Assembly (NCBI GenBank): GCA_944325225.1
Contig: CALUZQ010000015.1
Span: 1-38,282, forward strand
Direction: 5' to 3'
Length of the DNA stretch: 38,282 nt
Origin: an uncultured Elusimicrobiales bacterium
GTDB taxonomy: Bacteria; Elusimicrobiota; Elusimicrobia; Elusimicrobiales; Elusimicrobiaceae
The stretch's first letter is position 1. Every line of letters begins with the position of its first letter. The notes beneath the pieces were generated by a model. It worked only from the letters and a program-made list of their open reading frames with translations, ran no database searches and was not told the origin of the DNA. Shown in pieces: positions 8,586 through 14,052 of the stretch. The position numbers were made by a program, and so were the translations under genes.

Positions 8586-10052
8586 ATGATGAAAAAAATT
8601 ATTTTTAGTTTGTTGCTGTTGTGTGGGGCGCTGTCGGTTTTTGGCAAGACCGCCACGCTGTATCACACCAGCGATACGCACGGTTTTTTTTATCCGCAAG
8701 CCGGGCGGGGCGGCGCGGCCGCGTTGGCGGCGGTGTTGGCGGCCGGCCCGAAAGAATACCTGCTGTTGGACAGCGGCGACTTTGCCGAAGGAACCGTGGA
8801 AACTCAACAATCCAACGGGCTGAAAGCCATTTGGCTGATGAACCGGCTGGGGTATCATGCCGCCACGATTGGCAATCACGAATTTGCTTTTAAAGATAAC
8901 GGGTTTGACAATTTGACCGCCGCTGCCCGATTCCCGCTGCTGGCCGCCAATATCCAGCCCAAAGAGGGGGAAAATCTGCCGGCGGGGTTGCGTTCTTATC
9001 AAATTTTTACCGTTGGCGGCATTCGGATTGCTGTTATCGGATTAGCCAACCGAAATCCTACCAAACCCAGTCAAAAATATCAATTTACCAAGCCGCTTCC
9101 CGCGTTGGAAAAAGCATTGAACGAAGCGGCCAAACAACACCCGGACGCCGTGGTGGTGTTGGCGCACGATTCCTTGGCCGACGACCGGCCCGGTTCTCCT
9201 AATTATATAGGGGACATTGGTCGCCAATTTAGCGGACGCGTGCATATCGTGCTGGGCGGGCACGCTCATCAGATTTTTCAAAACGAAATCCGCGGCGGCA
9301 TTCTGCTTGCCGAAAGCGGCGCCCACTTGAAACAAGTTACTAAAATTACCCTGCAAACCGATGATAAAACCGGAAAAATAAAATCGGTCCGTTCGGAGTT
9401 GATTCCCTTGGAAATTGCCCAAACGGGAGAGGATAAAAAAATCAAAGCGTATGCCGAGTCCCTGCGGGAGCCGGGGGTAGATGAACCGGTGGGGCAAACC
9501 ACCGCCGCCTTTTATAAAAAAGCATTCATTCCCGGGCATATGGATTCCCCAACCGATAACTGGGTGGCCGACGCTACCTGCCGGTATGCTCCGGCCGATG
9601 TGTGTATTCACAATACGGGCGGCGCGCGCGTAGGACTGGCGAAAGGGGAGATTACCCGGCGGGATATTATTGATCTGTATCCGTTTGACAATACGGTGGT
9701 TACGGCGTCGGTAAGCGGGGAATTTCTGAAAAAATTAGTGGCCGGGGGCCTTGTTCCCTGGAATCGGCTGGCCTATTCGGGGTTGACGGTTTCGTATCGG
9801 AAAACGAAAAAAGGCAAAATCAAAAATTTAAAAATCTGGGTGCGCGGCGAGCGCCTGCAGGAAGATAAACAATATACCGTTTCGGTTAATTCCTATGTGG
9901 CGGGAGGCGGCAGCGAGGGAAAACTGTTTAAAACCTTGCCGGACGGAGCGGTCCGTCCCTCCGGAGAAAAAACCATGCGCCAAATTTTAGAGGACGATTT
10001 TAAACAGGGGGCTCTCACCCCGCCTCAGACGGGTCGGATCCGCCAAAAATAG
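8586..10052 (+). CDS. Exported 5'-nucleotidase-family metallophosphatase (copy 1)
   Basis: 488 residues, UshA/5'-nucleotidase superfamily. A signal peptide (about 1-20) is followed by a calcineurin-like metallophosphatase domain with all expected metal ligands: D30/H32 in TSDTHG, D65 in DSGDF, N97-H98 in GNHEF, H194 in AHDSL, and H226/H228 in GGHAH. The C-terminal 5'-nucleotidase domain (about 290-480) has HNTGGARVGLAKGEIT, YPFDNTVV and YVAGGGSEG. The enzyme probably hydrolyses nucleotides or related phosphoesters in the periplasm; the exact substrate is not predictable. It is a close paralogue of the next gene and a remote one of the third. The start is the first of two adjacent ATGs; no ribosome binding site lies directly upstream, only a hairpin. 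Confidence 0.9.
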   Translation: MMKKIIFSLLLLCGALSVFGKTATLYHTSDTHGFFYPQAGRGGAAALAAVLAAGPKEYLLLDSGDFAEGTVETQQSNGLKAIWLMNRLGYHAATIGNHEFAFKDNGFDNLTAAARFPLLAANIQPKEGENLPAGLRSYQIFTVGGIRIAVIGLANRNPTKPSQKYQFTKPLPALEKALNEAAKQHPDAVVVLAHDSLADDRPGSPNYIGDIGRQFSGRVHIVLGGHAHQIFQNEIRGGILLAESGAHLKQVTKITLQTDDKTGKIKSVRSELIPLEIAQTGEDKKIKAYAESLREPGVDEPVGQTTAAFYKKAFIPGHMDSPTDNWVADATCRYAPADVCIHNTGGARVGLAKGEITRRDIIDLYPFDNTVVTASVSGEFLKKLVAGGLVPWNRLAYSGLTVSYRKTKKGKIKNLKIWVRGERLQEDKQYTVSVNSYVAGGGSEGKLFKTLPDGAVRPSGEKTMRQILEDDFKQGALTPPQTGRIRQK

Positions 10053-10122: not shown

Positions 10123-11586
10123 ATGAAAAAAACCGGATTATTGGCTGTGTTTTTGTTGTTGCCGCTGGTCTTGCTGGCTAAAACTACGACGATTTATCAT
10201 ACCAGCGATACGCATGGATTTTTTTATCCCAAATCCGGCCAGGGCGGTTTTGCCGCTTTAGCGGCTGTCATTAAAGCGGGCCCGGCCAACTACCTGCTGC
10301 TGGACAGCGGCGACTTTTCCAACGGTACCGTAGAAACCCGTAACTCCCAAGGGCTTAAAGCCGTGCAGCTGATGAACCGTATGAGTTATGACGCCGCCAC
10401 CATTGGCAATCACGAATTTGATTTTAAGGACGAAGGGTTTGCCCCGCTGTTAGCCAATGCCCAGTTTGCCGTGCTGGCCGCTAACTTTTTTGAAACGGCT
10501 ACCGGTAAGTATCCGCCTTCGGTACTTCCTTATAAAATTTTTGATGAGAACGGCGTAAAAGTGGCAGTTATCGGGTTGGCAAACCGGGAACCTACCAACC
10601 CTTCCAAACAATACGCGTACGGCAAACCGATGGACGCGCTGGAAAAAGCCCTAAAAGAAGTGGAAGCCAAAGAGCCCAATTTTGTGGTGGTGTTGGTCCA
10701 CGATTCTTTAAAGGACGAAAAACACGGCACCAAGGCGTATGTCGGCGATATCGCCCGGAAATTTGGCGGGCGCGTGCATATCGTGCTGGGCGGGCATGCG
10801 CATAATATCTTTCAAAACGAATACATCAACGGCACGCTGTTTGTGGAAAGCGGCTGTTATTTAAAAAATGTCAGCCGCATCAGCGTTGAAACCGATGACG
10901 AAACCGGAAAATTTGTGTCGGCCAAATCGGAATTGATTCCGTTGGCGGTGGCTCAAACGGGGGAGGACGAAGCCCTCAAAGCATACGCCGATTCGCTGCG
11001 CGAGCCGGGGGTGGACGAAGTGCTGGGGGAACCCGCTGCCGCTATGAGCCGCCTGCCCCAGCAGGACGACCGGCAGGACGCGCCACTGAATAATTGGATT
11101 GCCGATTTGGTCCGGGCGTATTCCGGTGCCCAAATTGCCGTACACAATAACGGCGGTACGCGGGTAGATATGCCCCAAGGGTCCGTTACCAAACGGGATT
11201 TAATTGATATCCACCCCTTTGACAATACCATTACCTTGGTAACGGTGGACGGCCGCTTTTTAAAGAAATTTATCAAAAAGAGTTTTGCTCCCAACAGCTT
11301 ATATTCCTATTCGGGGCTGACGATTTCGTATAAGAAAAACAAAAAAGGGAAAATTAAAGATATAGAAATTCGGGTGGACGGCAAGCCCATACAGAATCGT
11401 CAAAAATACACCCTGGCGACCAATTCCTATATTGCCGGCGGCGGCAGTGAAGGGTGGATGTTTAAAAAAATCCCGGCCCAAAACAAAAAACTGGCGGGGA
11501 CGAAAACCATTCGCGACTTAATGGAAGACGCCCTGCGCGAGGGAACGGTGGTGCCGCCTGAAACCGGGAGAATCAAACAACGCTGA
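10123..11586 (+). CDS. Exported 5'-nucleotidase-family metallophosphatase (copy 2)
   Basis: 487 residues, co-linear with copy 1 over the whole length. A signal peptide (about 1-19) precedes intact metal-binding motifs: TSDTHG (D29, H31), DSGDF, GNHEF, VHDSL and GGHAH. The C-terminal substrate domain has HNNGGTRVDMPQGSVTKRDL, HPFDNTITLV and SYIAGGGSEG. Predicted role is periplasmic nucleotide/phosphoester hydrolysis, perhaps salvage of nucleosides and phosphate. It follows copy 1 after 70 nt and precedes copy 3 by 1 nt. Why two intact copies are kept is unknown; divergence in substrate specificity is plausible. Confidence 0.9.
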   Translation: MKKTGLLAVFLLLPLVLLAKTTTIYHTSDTHGFFYPKSGQGGFAALAAVIKAGPANYLLLDSGDFSNGTVETRNSQGLKAVQLMNRMSYDAATIGNHEFDFKDEGFAPLLANAQFAVLAANFFETATGKYPPSVLPYKIFDENGVKVAVIGLANREPTNPSKQYAYGKPMDALEKALKEVEAKEPNFVVVLVHDSLKDEKHGTKAYVGDIARKFGGRVHIVLGGHAHNIFQNEYINGTLFVESGCYLKNVSRISVETDDETGKFVSAKSELIPLAVAQTGEDEALKAYADSLREPGVDEVLGEPAAAMSRLPQQDDRQDAPLNNWIADLVRAYSGAQIAVHNNGGTRVDMPQGSVTKRDLIDIHPFDNTITLVTVDGRFLKKFIKKSFAPNSLYSYSGLTISYKKNKKGKIKDIEIRVDGKPIQNRQKYTLATNSYIAGGGSEGWMFKKIPAQNKKLAGTKTIRDLMEDALREGTVVPPETGRIKQR

Positions 11587-11587
11587 T

Positions 11588-13078
11588 ATGAATGGAAAAC
11601 GATGGAGCTGGCTGTTGGCGGTTTTGTTCCTGGCCGGCGGCTGCGGACGGGAAGAATTGACGCATATTGATATCTATTATACGGCTGATGTGCAGGGTTT
11701 TTACTGGTCGCGGCCGGAACCGCGCTGGGAGAACCGCGAAGCCGGCGGATATGCCGTGCTGAAGAAATTCTTGCAGAGCCGCAGCGAGCCCTATTTGTTA
11801 TTTGACGGCGGCAGCTGGTTCGGTTCCGCGCCCGAAGGCACGATGACCAAAGGCGCTTATGTGGCGGAGCTGGCGCGCACTTTGCCTTATACCGCGGGAA
11901 CCATCAGCGATAAAGATTTGGTGTATGGCTGGCCTTCGCTGCGGACCATTGTGCAGAAACTGCCTTATCCGTTTGTGGCATCTAATTTACGGTTGGAAAA
12001 TAAACTGCCCTGGCCTTTGCACGATTATCAGATACGCACTATTAGCGGAATTAAAATTGGCATTTTCGGGTTGGTTAGCTCCCAGGCGGTTAACAAAAAT
12101 AAAGCCCGTTTATTGGGGCTTCAAGCATTAGATTCCTTGCAAGTCGCCCAGGAGATGACGGCCCTTTTGAAAGAAAAAAATGTAGATTATATCATTGTGC
12201 TCAGCTCCCTGGGCGCGTCCCAGCAAGACGGCGCAACCGATACTTCTGTAGCCGAAGAAAACCCCGGCATAGGGTTAATTTTAAGTTCCAATAAAGACCG
12301 GGAAAACGCCGAAACGGATCAAATCAATGACACTTTTATTGTCTATCCCGGTTCTAAGTTGGACAGCGTGGCCCATATCCGTTTGTTTTTTGATAAAAAC
12401 AGGCAGCTGCGAAGCACTTCTTTTGAAGATATCGCTTTGTTAAAGGACAATTTCGGTGAAGACCCCGAAATCGCCGCCCACGCGGCAGATTTGCGGGCGG
12501 CTACACGCAAAAAAATGAATGCCCGCGTGGCGGAACTGCCGGAAGCAATTGGTATGGATTTGGCGGGCGAATCGGAATTGGGCGATTTGTTGGCCCAATG
12601 TCTGTATAAATGGTCCAAGTTAGACGGGGCAATCCTAAATTCCGATTCTATCCGCAGTGCGCTGCCGGCGGGGCGTCTGACGGAGTATGATTTGTACAAA
12701 GCTTATCCGTACGGGGATAACATTACTTTCCTTACTATTAAAGGCGCGGCTTTTTTAAAAGCCATGGAACTTTCTTTAAACGCCAAGGACAATTTTCCGC
12801 AGATTGCCGGGTTTACCGTTTCGTATGCCGATACTCCTGACGGTAAAAAAATCCGTCAGATCGTGTTGGATAACGGCCGGATTATTCGCCCGCAGGAAAC
12901 TTATCGTTTTGCCGTAACGGACCATGTCCTGGCGGGCGGGTTTGGGCATGATGGGTTTATAGATTCCCTGGAATTTAAGAACACATTTGTAGAAGCCCGG
13001 CAGATTATGCGTTCCTGCCTGGCACGCCAAAAGACGGTGCTGGCTCCTAAGTTGGGCCGCTGGAAGAAGGTGTTATGA
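11588..13078 (+). CDS. Lipoprotein, degenerate 5'-nucleotidase paralogue (probable pseudoenzyme, copy 3)
   Basis: 496 residues, aligned along the full length with copies 1 and 2. It has a lipoprotein signal (LFLAGGC, lipidated C19) instead of a cleavable signal peptide. Every metal-ligand motif of the metallophosphatase domain is altered: TSDTHG becomes TADVQG (His to Gln at 36), DSGD becomes DGGS (73-76), GNHE becomes SDKD (107-110), HDSL becomes SSLG, and GGHAH becomes SSNKD. The C-terminal domain is better kept (NSDSIRSALPAGRLTEYDL, YPYGDNITFLTI, HVLAGGFGHDGF). It therefore cannot be a normal two-metal phosphatase. A binding, scaffolding or regulatory role beside the two active copies is likely. 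It overlaps dusB by 4 nt (ATGA). The intact frame and coherent substitutions argue against a decaying pseudogene. Confidence 0.85.
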   Translation: MNGKRWSWLLAVLFLAGGCGREELTHIDIYYTADVQGFYWSRPEPRWENREAGGYAVLKKFLQSRSEPYLLFDGGSWFGSAPEGTMTKGAYVAELARTLPYTAGTISDKDLVYGWPSLRTIVQKLPYPFVASNLRLENKLPWPLHDYQIRTISGIKIGIFGLVSSQAVNKNKARLLGLQALDSLQVAQEMTALLKEKNVDYIIVLSSLGASQQDGATDTSVAEENPGIGLILSSNKDRENAETDQINDTFIVYPGSKLDSVAHIRLFFDKNRQLRSTSFEDIALLKDNFGEDPEIAAHAADLRAATRKKMNARVAELPEAIGMDLAGESELGDLLAQCLYKWSKLDGAILNSDSIRSALPAGRLTEYDLYKAYPYGDNITFLTIKGAAFLKAMELSLNAKDNFPQIAGFTVSYADTPDGKKIRQIVLDNGRIIRPQETYRFAVTDHVLAGGFGHDGFIDSLEFKNTFVEARQIMRSCLARQKTVLAPKLGRWKKVL

Positions 13079-14052
13079 GTGCTGTCCGCCCGCTGACGAT
13101 TGGTTCCTTTACGGCTCCCAACAATTTGCTTTTAGCCCCCATGGCGGGGATTACGGATTCCCCGTTTCGGGTGCTGTGTCTAAAAGGCGGCGCGGGGATT
13201 GTGTGTGCGGAAATGGTTTCCGCGCATGCCTTGCATTACGGTAATGAAAAAAGTGGGCGAATGCTGCAGGTGAATCCCAAGGAACACCCGGTTTCTATGC
13301 AAATTTTCGGGGCAGACGAACCAACTATCGCCGAGGCCGCCCGGCTGGCGGAACAGCAAGGCGCCGATATCGTGGATTTAAATGCCGGGTGCCCGGTAAA
13401 AAAAATCAACAAAGCCGGTGCGGGCTGCGTGCTGATGAAAGACGAAGCCAAACTGGGCCGGCTGATTGAAGCCGCGGTAAAAAGCGTGAAAATACCCGTT
13501 ACGCTAAAAACGCGTATTGCGCTGAACCACAAAGAATTTTTAGCTGTTCGGCTGGCCAAACTGGCCGAGCAGGCGGGTGCCAGCGCTATTACCCTGCATG
13601 CCCGCGCGGCGGTAGATGTACATAGCGGTCCGCCCAACATTGAAGCCGTGGGAGAAGCGTGTGCGGCGGTAAAAATCCCCGTGATTGGAAATGGCGGCAT
13701 CGTCAATGCCGCGGTGGCGCAGCAATTTTTTCAGGCCGGCTGTGCCGGTATTATGATTGGGCGCGGGGCGGTGGGAAACCCGTTTATTTTCCGGGATATT
13801 ATAGATGTTTTGGAGGGCCGGGAGCCGGCTTCCCAAACGACGCAGAACCGTTTGATGATTTACCTGGAATTAATCCGCGAGAATGCGGCTTATTATGGGG
13901 AGCGCATCGGTGTCAACCGCAGCCGCAAAACGGCGGGCGGCTGGATTAAAGATTTTCCTAACGCGGCCGAGGTGCGCGGCCGCTTTGTGCGGCTGGAAAC
14001 CCTGGCCGAAATTGAAGCGCTGTTTTCCCAAACTTTGGCGCGGCTGCAATAA
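13075..14052 (+). CDS. dusB: tRNA-dihydrouridine synthase (DusB family)
   Basis: 325 residues, FMN-dependent TIM barrel. Seen: LLAPMAGITDSPFR at the N-terminus, EMVSAHAL, the catalytic cysteine in LNAGCPVKKI (C106), KTRIALNH, TLHARAA, IPVIGNGGIVN and GIMIGRGAVGNPFIF, followed by a short helical C-terminal domain. It reduces specific uridines in the tRNA D-loop using NADPH. The start overlaps the stop of the preceding lipoprotein (ATGA), so it is co-translated with the nucleotidase cluster. rplM follows downstream from its own promoter. Confidence 0.93.
   Translation: MSAVRPLTIGSFTAPNNLLLAPMAGITDSPFRVLCLKGGAGIVCAEMVSAHALHYGNEKSGRMLQVNPKEHPVSMQIFGADEPTIAEAARLAEQQGADIVDLNAGCPVKKINKAGAGCVLMKDEAKLGRLIEAAVKSVKIPVTLKTRIALNHKEFLAVRLAKLAEQAGASAITLHARAAVDVHSGPPNIEAVGEACAAVKIPVIGNGGIVNAAVAQQFFQAGCAGIMIGRGAVGNPFIFRDIIDVLEGREPASQTTQNRLMIYLELIRENAAYYGERIGVNRSRKTAGGWIKDFPNAAEVRGRFVRLETLAEIEALFSQTLARLQ

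What the first reader, a model, noticed from the sequence alone, without database searches (positions are those of the whole stretch)
11588..13078. Lipoprotein pseudo-5'-nucleotidase with all metal-ligand motifs replaced
Beside two intact paralogues, the third copy keeps length and fold pattern but changes DTHG to DVQG, SGD to GGS, GNHE to SDKD, HDSL to SSLG and GGHAH to SSNKD, and gains a lipobox. Loss of every ligand, together with a preserved C-terminal substrate domain and an intact frame, points to a selected non-catalytic role such as binding nucleotides or anchoring the active enzymes.
Basis: partly seen in the sequence, partly recalled or inferred. Interest (0 to 1): 0.66.

Follow-up and report, generated by a model that had tools for sequence, protein, structure and literature searches.

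The report
Lipid-anchored dead twin of secreted nucleotidase
A gut Elusimicrobia bacterium, like nearly all its relatives checked, carries a copy of a secreted nucleotide-cutting enzyme that has lost its metal-binding catalytic site, has a lipid membrane anchor and sits right behind its working twin, which suggests a dead partner subunit kept by selection across an order of bacteria.

Summary
The ORF at 11588-13078 (496 aa) is an intact full-length paralogue of the two nucleotidases upstream. Seven of the eight metal or catalytic positions are replaced; the first Asp (Asp34) is kept, so 'every ligand' is overstated. It is not an isolated relic: an orthologue occurs in all 37 genus genomes examined, in most other genera read from the same family, and in 17 of 24 genomes of a second family of the order. 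In 82 distinct copies the catalytic site is lost (one only partly), the lipoprotein cysteine is invariant (82/82), and a second Cys pair is near-invariant. The 142 site-intact relatives show no credible lipobox. At least 77 of 82 copies lie directly downstream of a site-intact copy, mostly within 20 nt. They form one clade (SH-aLRT 99), and close genus pairs show dN/dS of about 0.05-0.19 in both domains. The best mechanism is a lipid-anchored non-catalytic partner of the adjacent secreted nucleotidase (inferred). Nucleotide binding is possible within this family but not order-wide, because the base-binding residues are lost in the second family.

The parts
8586..10052 (+). Copy 1: secreted 5'-nucleotidase-like enzyme, site-intact, signal peptide without lipobox
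   Evidence: PF00149 1.7e-12 and PF02872 3.6e-27; ligands DHDNHHHH
10123..11586 (+). Copy 2: secreted 5'-nucleotidase-like enzyme, site-intact, signal peptide without lipobox; direct upstream neighbour of the dead copy
   Evidence: PF00149 7.7e-14 and PF02872 4e-31; ligands DHDNHHHH; AlphaFold2 pLDDT 92.6, TM about 0.8 to closed CD73
11588..13078 (+). Copy 3: the pseudo-5'-nucleotidase lipoprotein (the finding)
   Evidence: AlphaFold2 mean pLDDT 90, pTM 0.83
11588..11644 (+). Type II signal peptide with lipobox ending in Cys19 (codon 11642-11644); +2 residue is Gly
   Evidence: Cys in 82/82 dead copies; no Asp at +2 in any of them; strict lipobox regex 60/70 dead and 1/109 site-intact copies, the single one judged spurious
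11687..11695 (+). Former D-x-H metal motif: Asp34 kept, His replaced by Gln36
11813..11818 (+). Former bridging metal Asp, now Ser76, followed by Trp77; Asn in most relatives (GNW motif)
   Evidence: Asn 71/82 and Trp 72/82 in dead copies; Asp 141/142 in site-intact copies
11909..11914 (+). Former GNH[D/E] motif: Asn to Asp108, catalytic His to Lys109
12206..12208 (+). Former metal His (HDSL), now Ser207
12290..12298 (+). Former GGHxH: Asn235 and Asp237 replace both His
12563..12946 (+). 5'-nucleotidase C-terminal (substrate) domain, PF02872
   Evidence: E 7.4e-23; found in 68/68 members of the dead set
12599..12601 (+). Copy-3-specific Cys338, possible disulphide partner of Cys477
   Evidence: Cys in 81/82 dead copies; Leu/Ala/Ile/Val in site-intact copies; disulphide inferred
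13016..13018 (+). Copy-3-specific Cys477
   Evidence: Cys in 80/82 dead copies; Ala/Gly/Asp/Tyr in site-intact copies
13075..14052 (+). tRNA-dihydrouridine synthase-like gene, start codon overlapping the stop of copy 3 (ATGA); operon neighbour
   Evidence: sequence; immediately downstream in 62 of 65 dead-copy loci of this family; family name from sequence and knowledge, not from a domain search

Best explanation
Copy 3 is a catalytically dead, lipid-anchored paralogue (pseudoenzyme) of the periplasmic or secreted 5'-nucleotidase encoded directly upstream. It is made in step with the active enzyme, exported, lipidated at Cys19 and, since no copy has Asp at +2, probably placed in the outer membrane. 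There it works as a non-catalytic partner that tethers, and possibly stabilises or activates, the freely secreted active nucleotidase(s), so that nucleotides are dephosphorylated at the cell envelope. Shown: paralogy, loss of 7 of 8 site residues, lipobox, linkage, single clade, purifying selection. Inferred: absence of activity, physical complex, membrane side, anchoring or activating effect.
For: Intact, paralogous, 7/8 site residues lost. Present in all 37 genus genomes examined (a few split over contigs) and in 17 of 24 genomes of a second family. Two-class signal peptides: lipoprotein Cys 82/82 dead, no credible lipobox in site-intact copies. At least 77/82 dead copies directly follow a site-intact copy on the same strand, 67 with a gap of 20 nt or less or an overlap; four of the other five lie near contig or locus ends and the fifth (L080) was a start-site misparse, about 5 nt downstream. 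No dead copy was shown to lack a site-intact neighbour, while site-intact copies do occur without a dead one. Dead copies are one clade, SH-aLRT 99, with site columns left out. dN/dS 0.05-0.19 in close genus pairs, similar in both domains. Weak rate co-variation with the site-intact copies, partial r 0.33-0.56 controlling for the downstream gene. Confident two-domain fold. Precedent for complexes of an active enzyme with a dead paralogue: trypanosomatid prozymes (PMC5201418, PMC3663545).
Against: No direct evidence of a complex: no multimer prediction or experiment was possible. Gene adjacency also arises by tandem duplication alone, although its retention through two families argues against mere inertia. 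Conserved Asp34, Gln/Glu36, Asn/Ser76, Asp/Glu108 and Asn235 in the genus leave room for a re-purposed pocket. The rate co-variation used one control gene and few taxa, and copy 1, which is not adjacent, gives a similar value.
Confidence: 0.5

Rival explanations
1. A nucleotide- or nucleoside-binding lipoprotein: the C-terminal domain still holds the base, and the protein captures substrate or product at the membrane for the active enzymes or a transporter.
For: In this genus the Asn and Arg that in CD73 contact ribose/base and phosphate are kept 53/53 and the stacking Phe is Tyr 53/53 (CD73 contacts from PMC8677862). PF02872 matches strongly.
Against: The second aromatic is mostly His, the GG after the Asn becomes D-S, and one Arg conserved in 140/142 site-intact copies is lost. 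In the second family Asn, Arg and both aromatics are mostly gone, so binding cannot be the order-wide role.
Confidence: 0.2
2. The emptied site is a new oxygen-donor metal or catalytic site (Asp34, Gln/Glu36, Asn76, Asp/Glu108, Asn235, Asp237), so the protein still binds a metal or does different chemistry.
For: In the genus these positions are conserved and are O-donors: Asp 53/53, Gln/Glu 50/53, Asn/Ser 53/53, Asp/Glu 49/53, Asn 50/53. Migrated catalytic residues are known in pseudoenzymes (PMC10211241).
Against: A Lys sits at the catalytic His position in 45/53. In the second family the first Asp is Arg in 13/17, the fifth-motif His is Glu in 9/17 and the Asn position is often hydrophobic, which looks like a salt bridge filling the hole rather than a metal site.
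Confidence: 0.12
3. An independent surface lipoprotein (structural, adhesion or sensor role) that merely inherited the operon position.
For: The most conserved copy-specific residues (Trp342, Asp445, Glu462-Phe463, Cys338/Cys477) lie outside the old metal site, consistent with a role not tied to nucleotides.
Against: Does not explain why no dead copy was shown to lack a neighbouring site-intact copy.
Confidence: 0.15
4. A decaying pseudogene.
For: Loss of catalytic residues in parallel lineages, with a partial intermediate (L151, DHDGMHNH).
Against: Intact frames in the copies read, invariant Cys19, dN/dS 0.05-0.19 in close genus pairs.
Confidence: 0.01

Closest known systems
UshA/CD73-type 5'-nucleotidases (PF00149 + PF02872; e.g. 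PDB 3ivd/3ive, 2z1a, E. coli UshA, human CD73)
   Same: Length, two-domain order and fold (Foldseek E 2.6e-39 to 3ivd), C-terminal domain match, exported
   Different: Seven of eight metal or catalytic positions replaced, no Metallophos match, lipoprotein, copy-specific Cys pair; predicted domain orientation unlike closed forms (TM about 0.55-0.62, best 0.74 to 6vc9)
Prozymes: dead paralogues that bind and activate the active enzyme (trypanosomatid AdoMetDC, deoxyhypusine synthase; PMC5201418, PMC3663545)
   Same: Active plus dead paralogue, both kept by selection
   Different: Different enzyme family; bacterial, extracytoplasmic, lipid-anchored; complex formation not shown here
NCBIfam NF041198, UshA-like (seleno)protein
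   Same: The N-terminal half of copy 3 matches it better (76 bits) than copies 1 and 2 do (46 and 49 bits)
   Different: Far below its 275-bit cut-off; phylum members read here carry a different changed site (SNDDQHHQ), show no lipobox by eye, and lie elsewhere in the genome

Membership tests
UshA/CD73 5'-nucleotidase family (as a catalytic member) | Two-domain architecture with C-terminal substrate domain PF02872 | tested here: met
   PF02872 7.4e-23; fold match to 3ivd, 2z1a and CD73
UshA/CD73 5'-nucleotidase family (as a catalytic member) | N-terminal calcineurin-like metallophosphatase domain PF00149 recognisable by profile | tested here: not met
   No match at E<1; not among the matched families for any of 68 members at E<0.1
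UshA/CD73 5'-nucleotidase family (as a catalytic member) | Dinuclear metal ligands and catalytic His (DxH, D, NH, H, HxH) | tested here: not met
   1 of 8 kept in copy 3 and in all 53 genus copies
UshA/CD73 5'-nucleotidase family (as a catalytic member) | Base clamp and phosphate/ribose contacts in the C-terminal domain | tested here: inconclusive
   Partly kept in this genus, lost in the second family
UshA/CD73 5'-nucleotidase family (as a catalytic member) | Nucleotidase activity | not testable with these tools
   Needs purified protein
Bacterial lipoproteins (signal peptidase II) | N-terminal signal peptide with lipobox Cys | tested here: met
   Cys in 82/82 copies, hydrophobic stretch and lipobox-like residues before it; lipidation itself not shown
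Pseudoenzyme | Catalytic motifs lost while fold and gene are kept by selection | tested here: met
   Motifs, fold, dN/dS
Pseudoenzyme | No migrated or alternative catalytic residues | tested here: inconclusive
   O-donor residues conserved in the genus pocket; no coordinates to test geometry
Prozyme-type active/inactive pair | Physical complex that changes activity or location of the active paralogue | not testable with these tools
   Only gene linkage and weak rate co-variation seen

The most novel reading that the evidence does not exclude
An order-wide bacterial two-subunit nucleotidase: a freely secreted catalytic subunit held at the cell envelope, and perhaps allosterically controlled, by its own catalytically dead, lipid-anchored paralogue, a prozyme-like arrangement that my searches did not find described for the 5'-nucleotidase family.
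Probability: 0.4. Interest if true: 0.65.

Novelty: new variant of a known kind. Interest (0 to 1): 0.5.

Why it matters
The best-described cases of a dead paralogue paired with its active enzyme that I met are from trypanosomes (prozymes). Here a bacterial order keeps a secreted enzyme and a lipid-anchored dead twin side by side, with a possible intermediate stage still visible. If the complex exists, it is a simple way for a bacterium to place a secreted enzyme at its envelope, and a natural series for studying how an enzyme subunit turns into a scaffold. Domain-based annotation would tend to call these genes 5'-nucleotidases, which would mis-state the activity.

Tried and rejected
Chance or sequencing error: rejected, since orthologues occur in 37/37 genus genomes examined. 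Pseudogene decay: rejected by dN/dS and invariant residues. Lineage-specific gain of the lipobox: rejected (Cys 82/82). Order-wide nucleotide binding: rejected because the base-binding residues are absent in the second family. Copy 3 as a member of NF041198: rejected, 76 bits against a cut-off of 275. Literature searches for a pseudo-5'-nucleotidase or a lipoprotein/dead nucleotidase pair found nothing relevant; the library holds open-licence papers only. Promoter and terminator scan across the operon was at chance level. Rate co-variation was inconclusive because non-adjacent copy 1 scores as high as copy 2.

Full report
What is there. The window is a whole contig (38,282 bases) of a 1.63-Mb, 55-contig genome. 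The closest named records are Elusimicrobia/Elusimicrobiales MAGs, several from rumen and other gut samples. Three consecutive genes on the + strand encode full-length relatives of the UshA/CD73 5'-nucleotidases: copy 1 (8586-10052), copy 2 (10123-11586) and copy 3 (11588-13078). Copies 1 and 2 match both Pfam domains of the family; copy 3 matches only the C-terminal one, and no Metallophos match appears even at E<1. Copy 3 starts one base after the stop of copy 2 (TGA-T-ATG), and its own stop overlaps the start of a dus-like gene (ATGA).

The motif changes. Copy 3 aligns end to end with its neighbours, and profile-profile comparison gives E 1.6e-76 over 478 columns. Of eight metal or catalytic positions (D, H, D, N, H, H, H, H) copy 3 has D34, Q36, S76, D108, K109, S207, N235 and D237. 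In the genus the usual string is D-Q/E-N-D-K-S-N-D, and exactly one of eight is kept in all 53 distinct genus copies. Ser76 of this window is a minority state; Asn is usual.

It is an old, conserved group. Every one of 61 genomes (own plus 60 relatives) has a hit. All 37 genus genomes, own included, carry the gene, the others at 43-83% identity and a few split across contigs. In a second family of the order, 17 of 24 genomes have a dead copy; in the other seven only site-intact copies were seen. Other genera of the first family also have the pair, including a one-contig genome of 1,643,562 bases, which I recognise from memory as the size of Elusimicrobium minutum. In total I classified 82 distinct dead and 142 site-intact sequences. 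Dead copies form one clade with SH-aLRT 99 on a tree from which the site columns were left out. The quick tree method and some long branches (notably L150) call for care about details.

Signal peptides fall into two classes. In the first set of 179 sequences, a strict lipobox pattern is found in 60 of 70 dead and 1 of 109 site-intact copies; the single hit lies inside an ordinary signal peptide, and in the ten dead copies that fail the pattern a Cys still ends the hydrophobic stretch. By alignment the Cys is present in 82/82 dead copies, 13-16 residues before the old first ligand and never followed by Asp. By the E. coli Lol rule (knowledge, not tested here) this predicts the outer membrane.

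Linkage. At least 77 of 82 dead copies directly follow a site-intact copy on the same strand; 67 have a gap of 20 nt or less, or overlap. Of the other five, four lie near contig or locus ends, and L080 was misparsed by my start-site rule (with the start given the gap is about 5 nt). In the first family the next gene down is the dus-like gene in 62 of 65 loci; in the second family it is in none of 17.

Selection. In the closest genus pairs (dS 0.2-0.9) dN/dS is 0.05-0.19, similar in the dead N-terminal half and the C-terminal half, and of the same order as in the neighbouring site-intact copies. Some second-family pairs with larger divergence give higher values in both dead and site-intact copies, where saturation makes them unreliable. 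Residues nearly invariant in dead copies but not in site-intact ones include Cys338 (81/82), Cys477 (80/82), Trp342, Asp445, Glu462 and Phe463. The two Cys lie on helices of the C-terminal domain, and a disulphide is likely but inferred.

Structure. AlphaFold2 from alignments of these loci gives mean pLDDT 90 (pTM 0.83) for copy 3 and 92.6 (0.84) for copy 2. Both match UshA/CD73 structures. The copy 2 model resembles closed forms (TM about 0.8 to closed CD73). The copy 3 model matches most entries at 0.55-0.62 and best at 0.74 to one CD73 entry (6vc9). The two halves are therefore predicted in a different relative orientation; this is suggestive only.

What it does. The C-terminal contacts for base, ribose and phosphate (CD73 Asn390, Arg395, Phe417, Phe500; PMC8677862) are partly kept in the genus: Asn 53/53, Arg 53/53, Tyr 53/53, and mostly His at the last. 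In the second family they are mostly lost. A role common to the order is therefore unlikely to be nucleotide binding. What is common is the lipid anchor, the intact fold, the Cys pair and a site-intact neighbour without an anchor. The simplest reading is a non-catalytic partner that places the secreted enzyme at the membrane, perhaps also tuning it. A physical complex is not shown. A partial rate-correlation test supports some co-variation (partial r 0.33-0.56) but does not single out the adjacent copy.

Path of decay. In L151 (another genus of the first family) the lipoprotein copy keeps five of eight positions (DHDGMHNH) yet has lost the catalytic His and the Asn, and it branches near the base of the first family's dead copies (support 83). 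If that is right, the anchor came first and the remaining ligands were lost later and in parallel in the two families.

Standing. My open-literature searches found no described dead 5'-nucleotidase paired with an active one; they cover only a licence-limited library. I rate it a new variant of a known kind.

Noticed in passing
L151:4374-5999 (+): A lipoprotein copy downstream of a site-intact copy with only partial site loss (DHDGMHNH: Asn and catalytic His lost, one further His to Asn), a possible evolutionary intermediate.
   Followed up: partly
L114-L120, L122, L124, L180-L183: Phylum members of the UshA-like family NF041198 carry another changed metal site (SNDDQHHQ: NSxNG for DxHG, GDQE for GNHE) and show no lipobox by eye; UshA-like proteins are linked in the literature to selenoproteins with a CxU motif (PMC2398784).
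   Followed up: no
window:11813-11815: This window's subclade has Ser at the former bridging Asp where most relatives have Asn, inside a GNW motif conserved across both families.
   Followed up: yes
L072:712-2421 (+): A Flavobacterium hit aligns with GNW instead of GNH and GGDTH instead of GGHxH, possibly another altered site; its long branch makes its placement unsure.
   Followed up: no
window:16781-18247 (-): Iron-only hydrogenase large-subunit C-terminal domain with several 4Fe-4S domains (PF02906, E 5.6e-55), near ribosomal-protein genes.
   Followed up: no
window:15098-15700 (+): A 200-aa exported-looking protein after the operon with no convincing Pfam family (best E 0.002).
   Followed up: no
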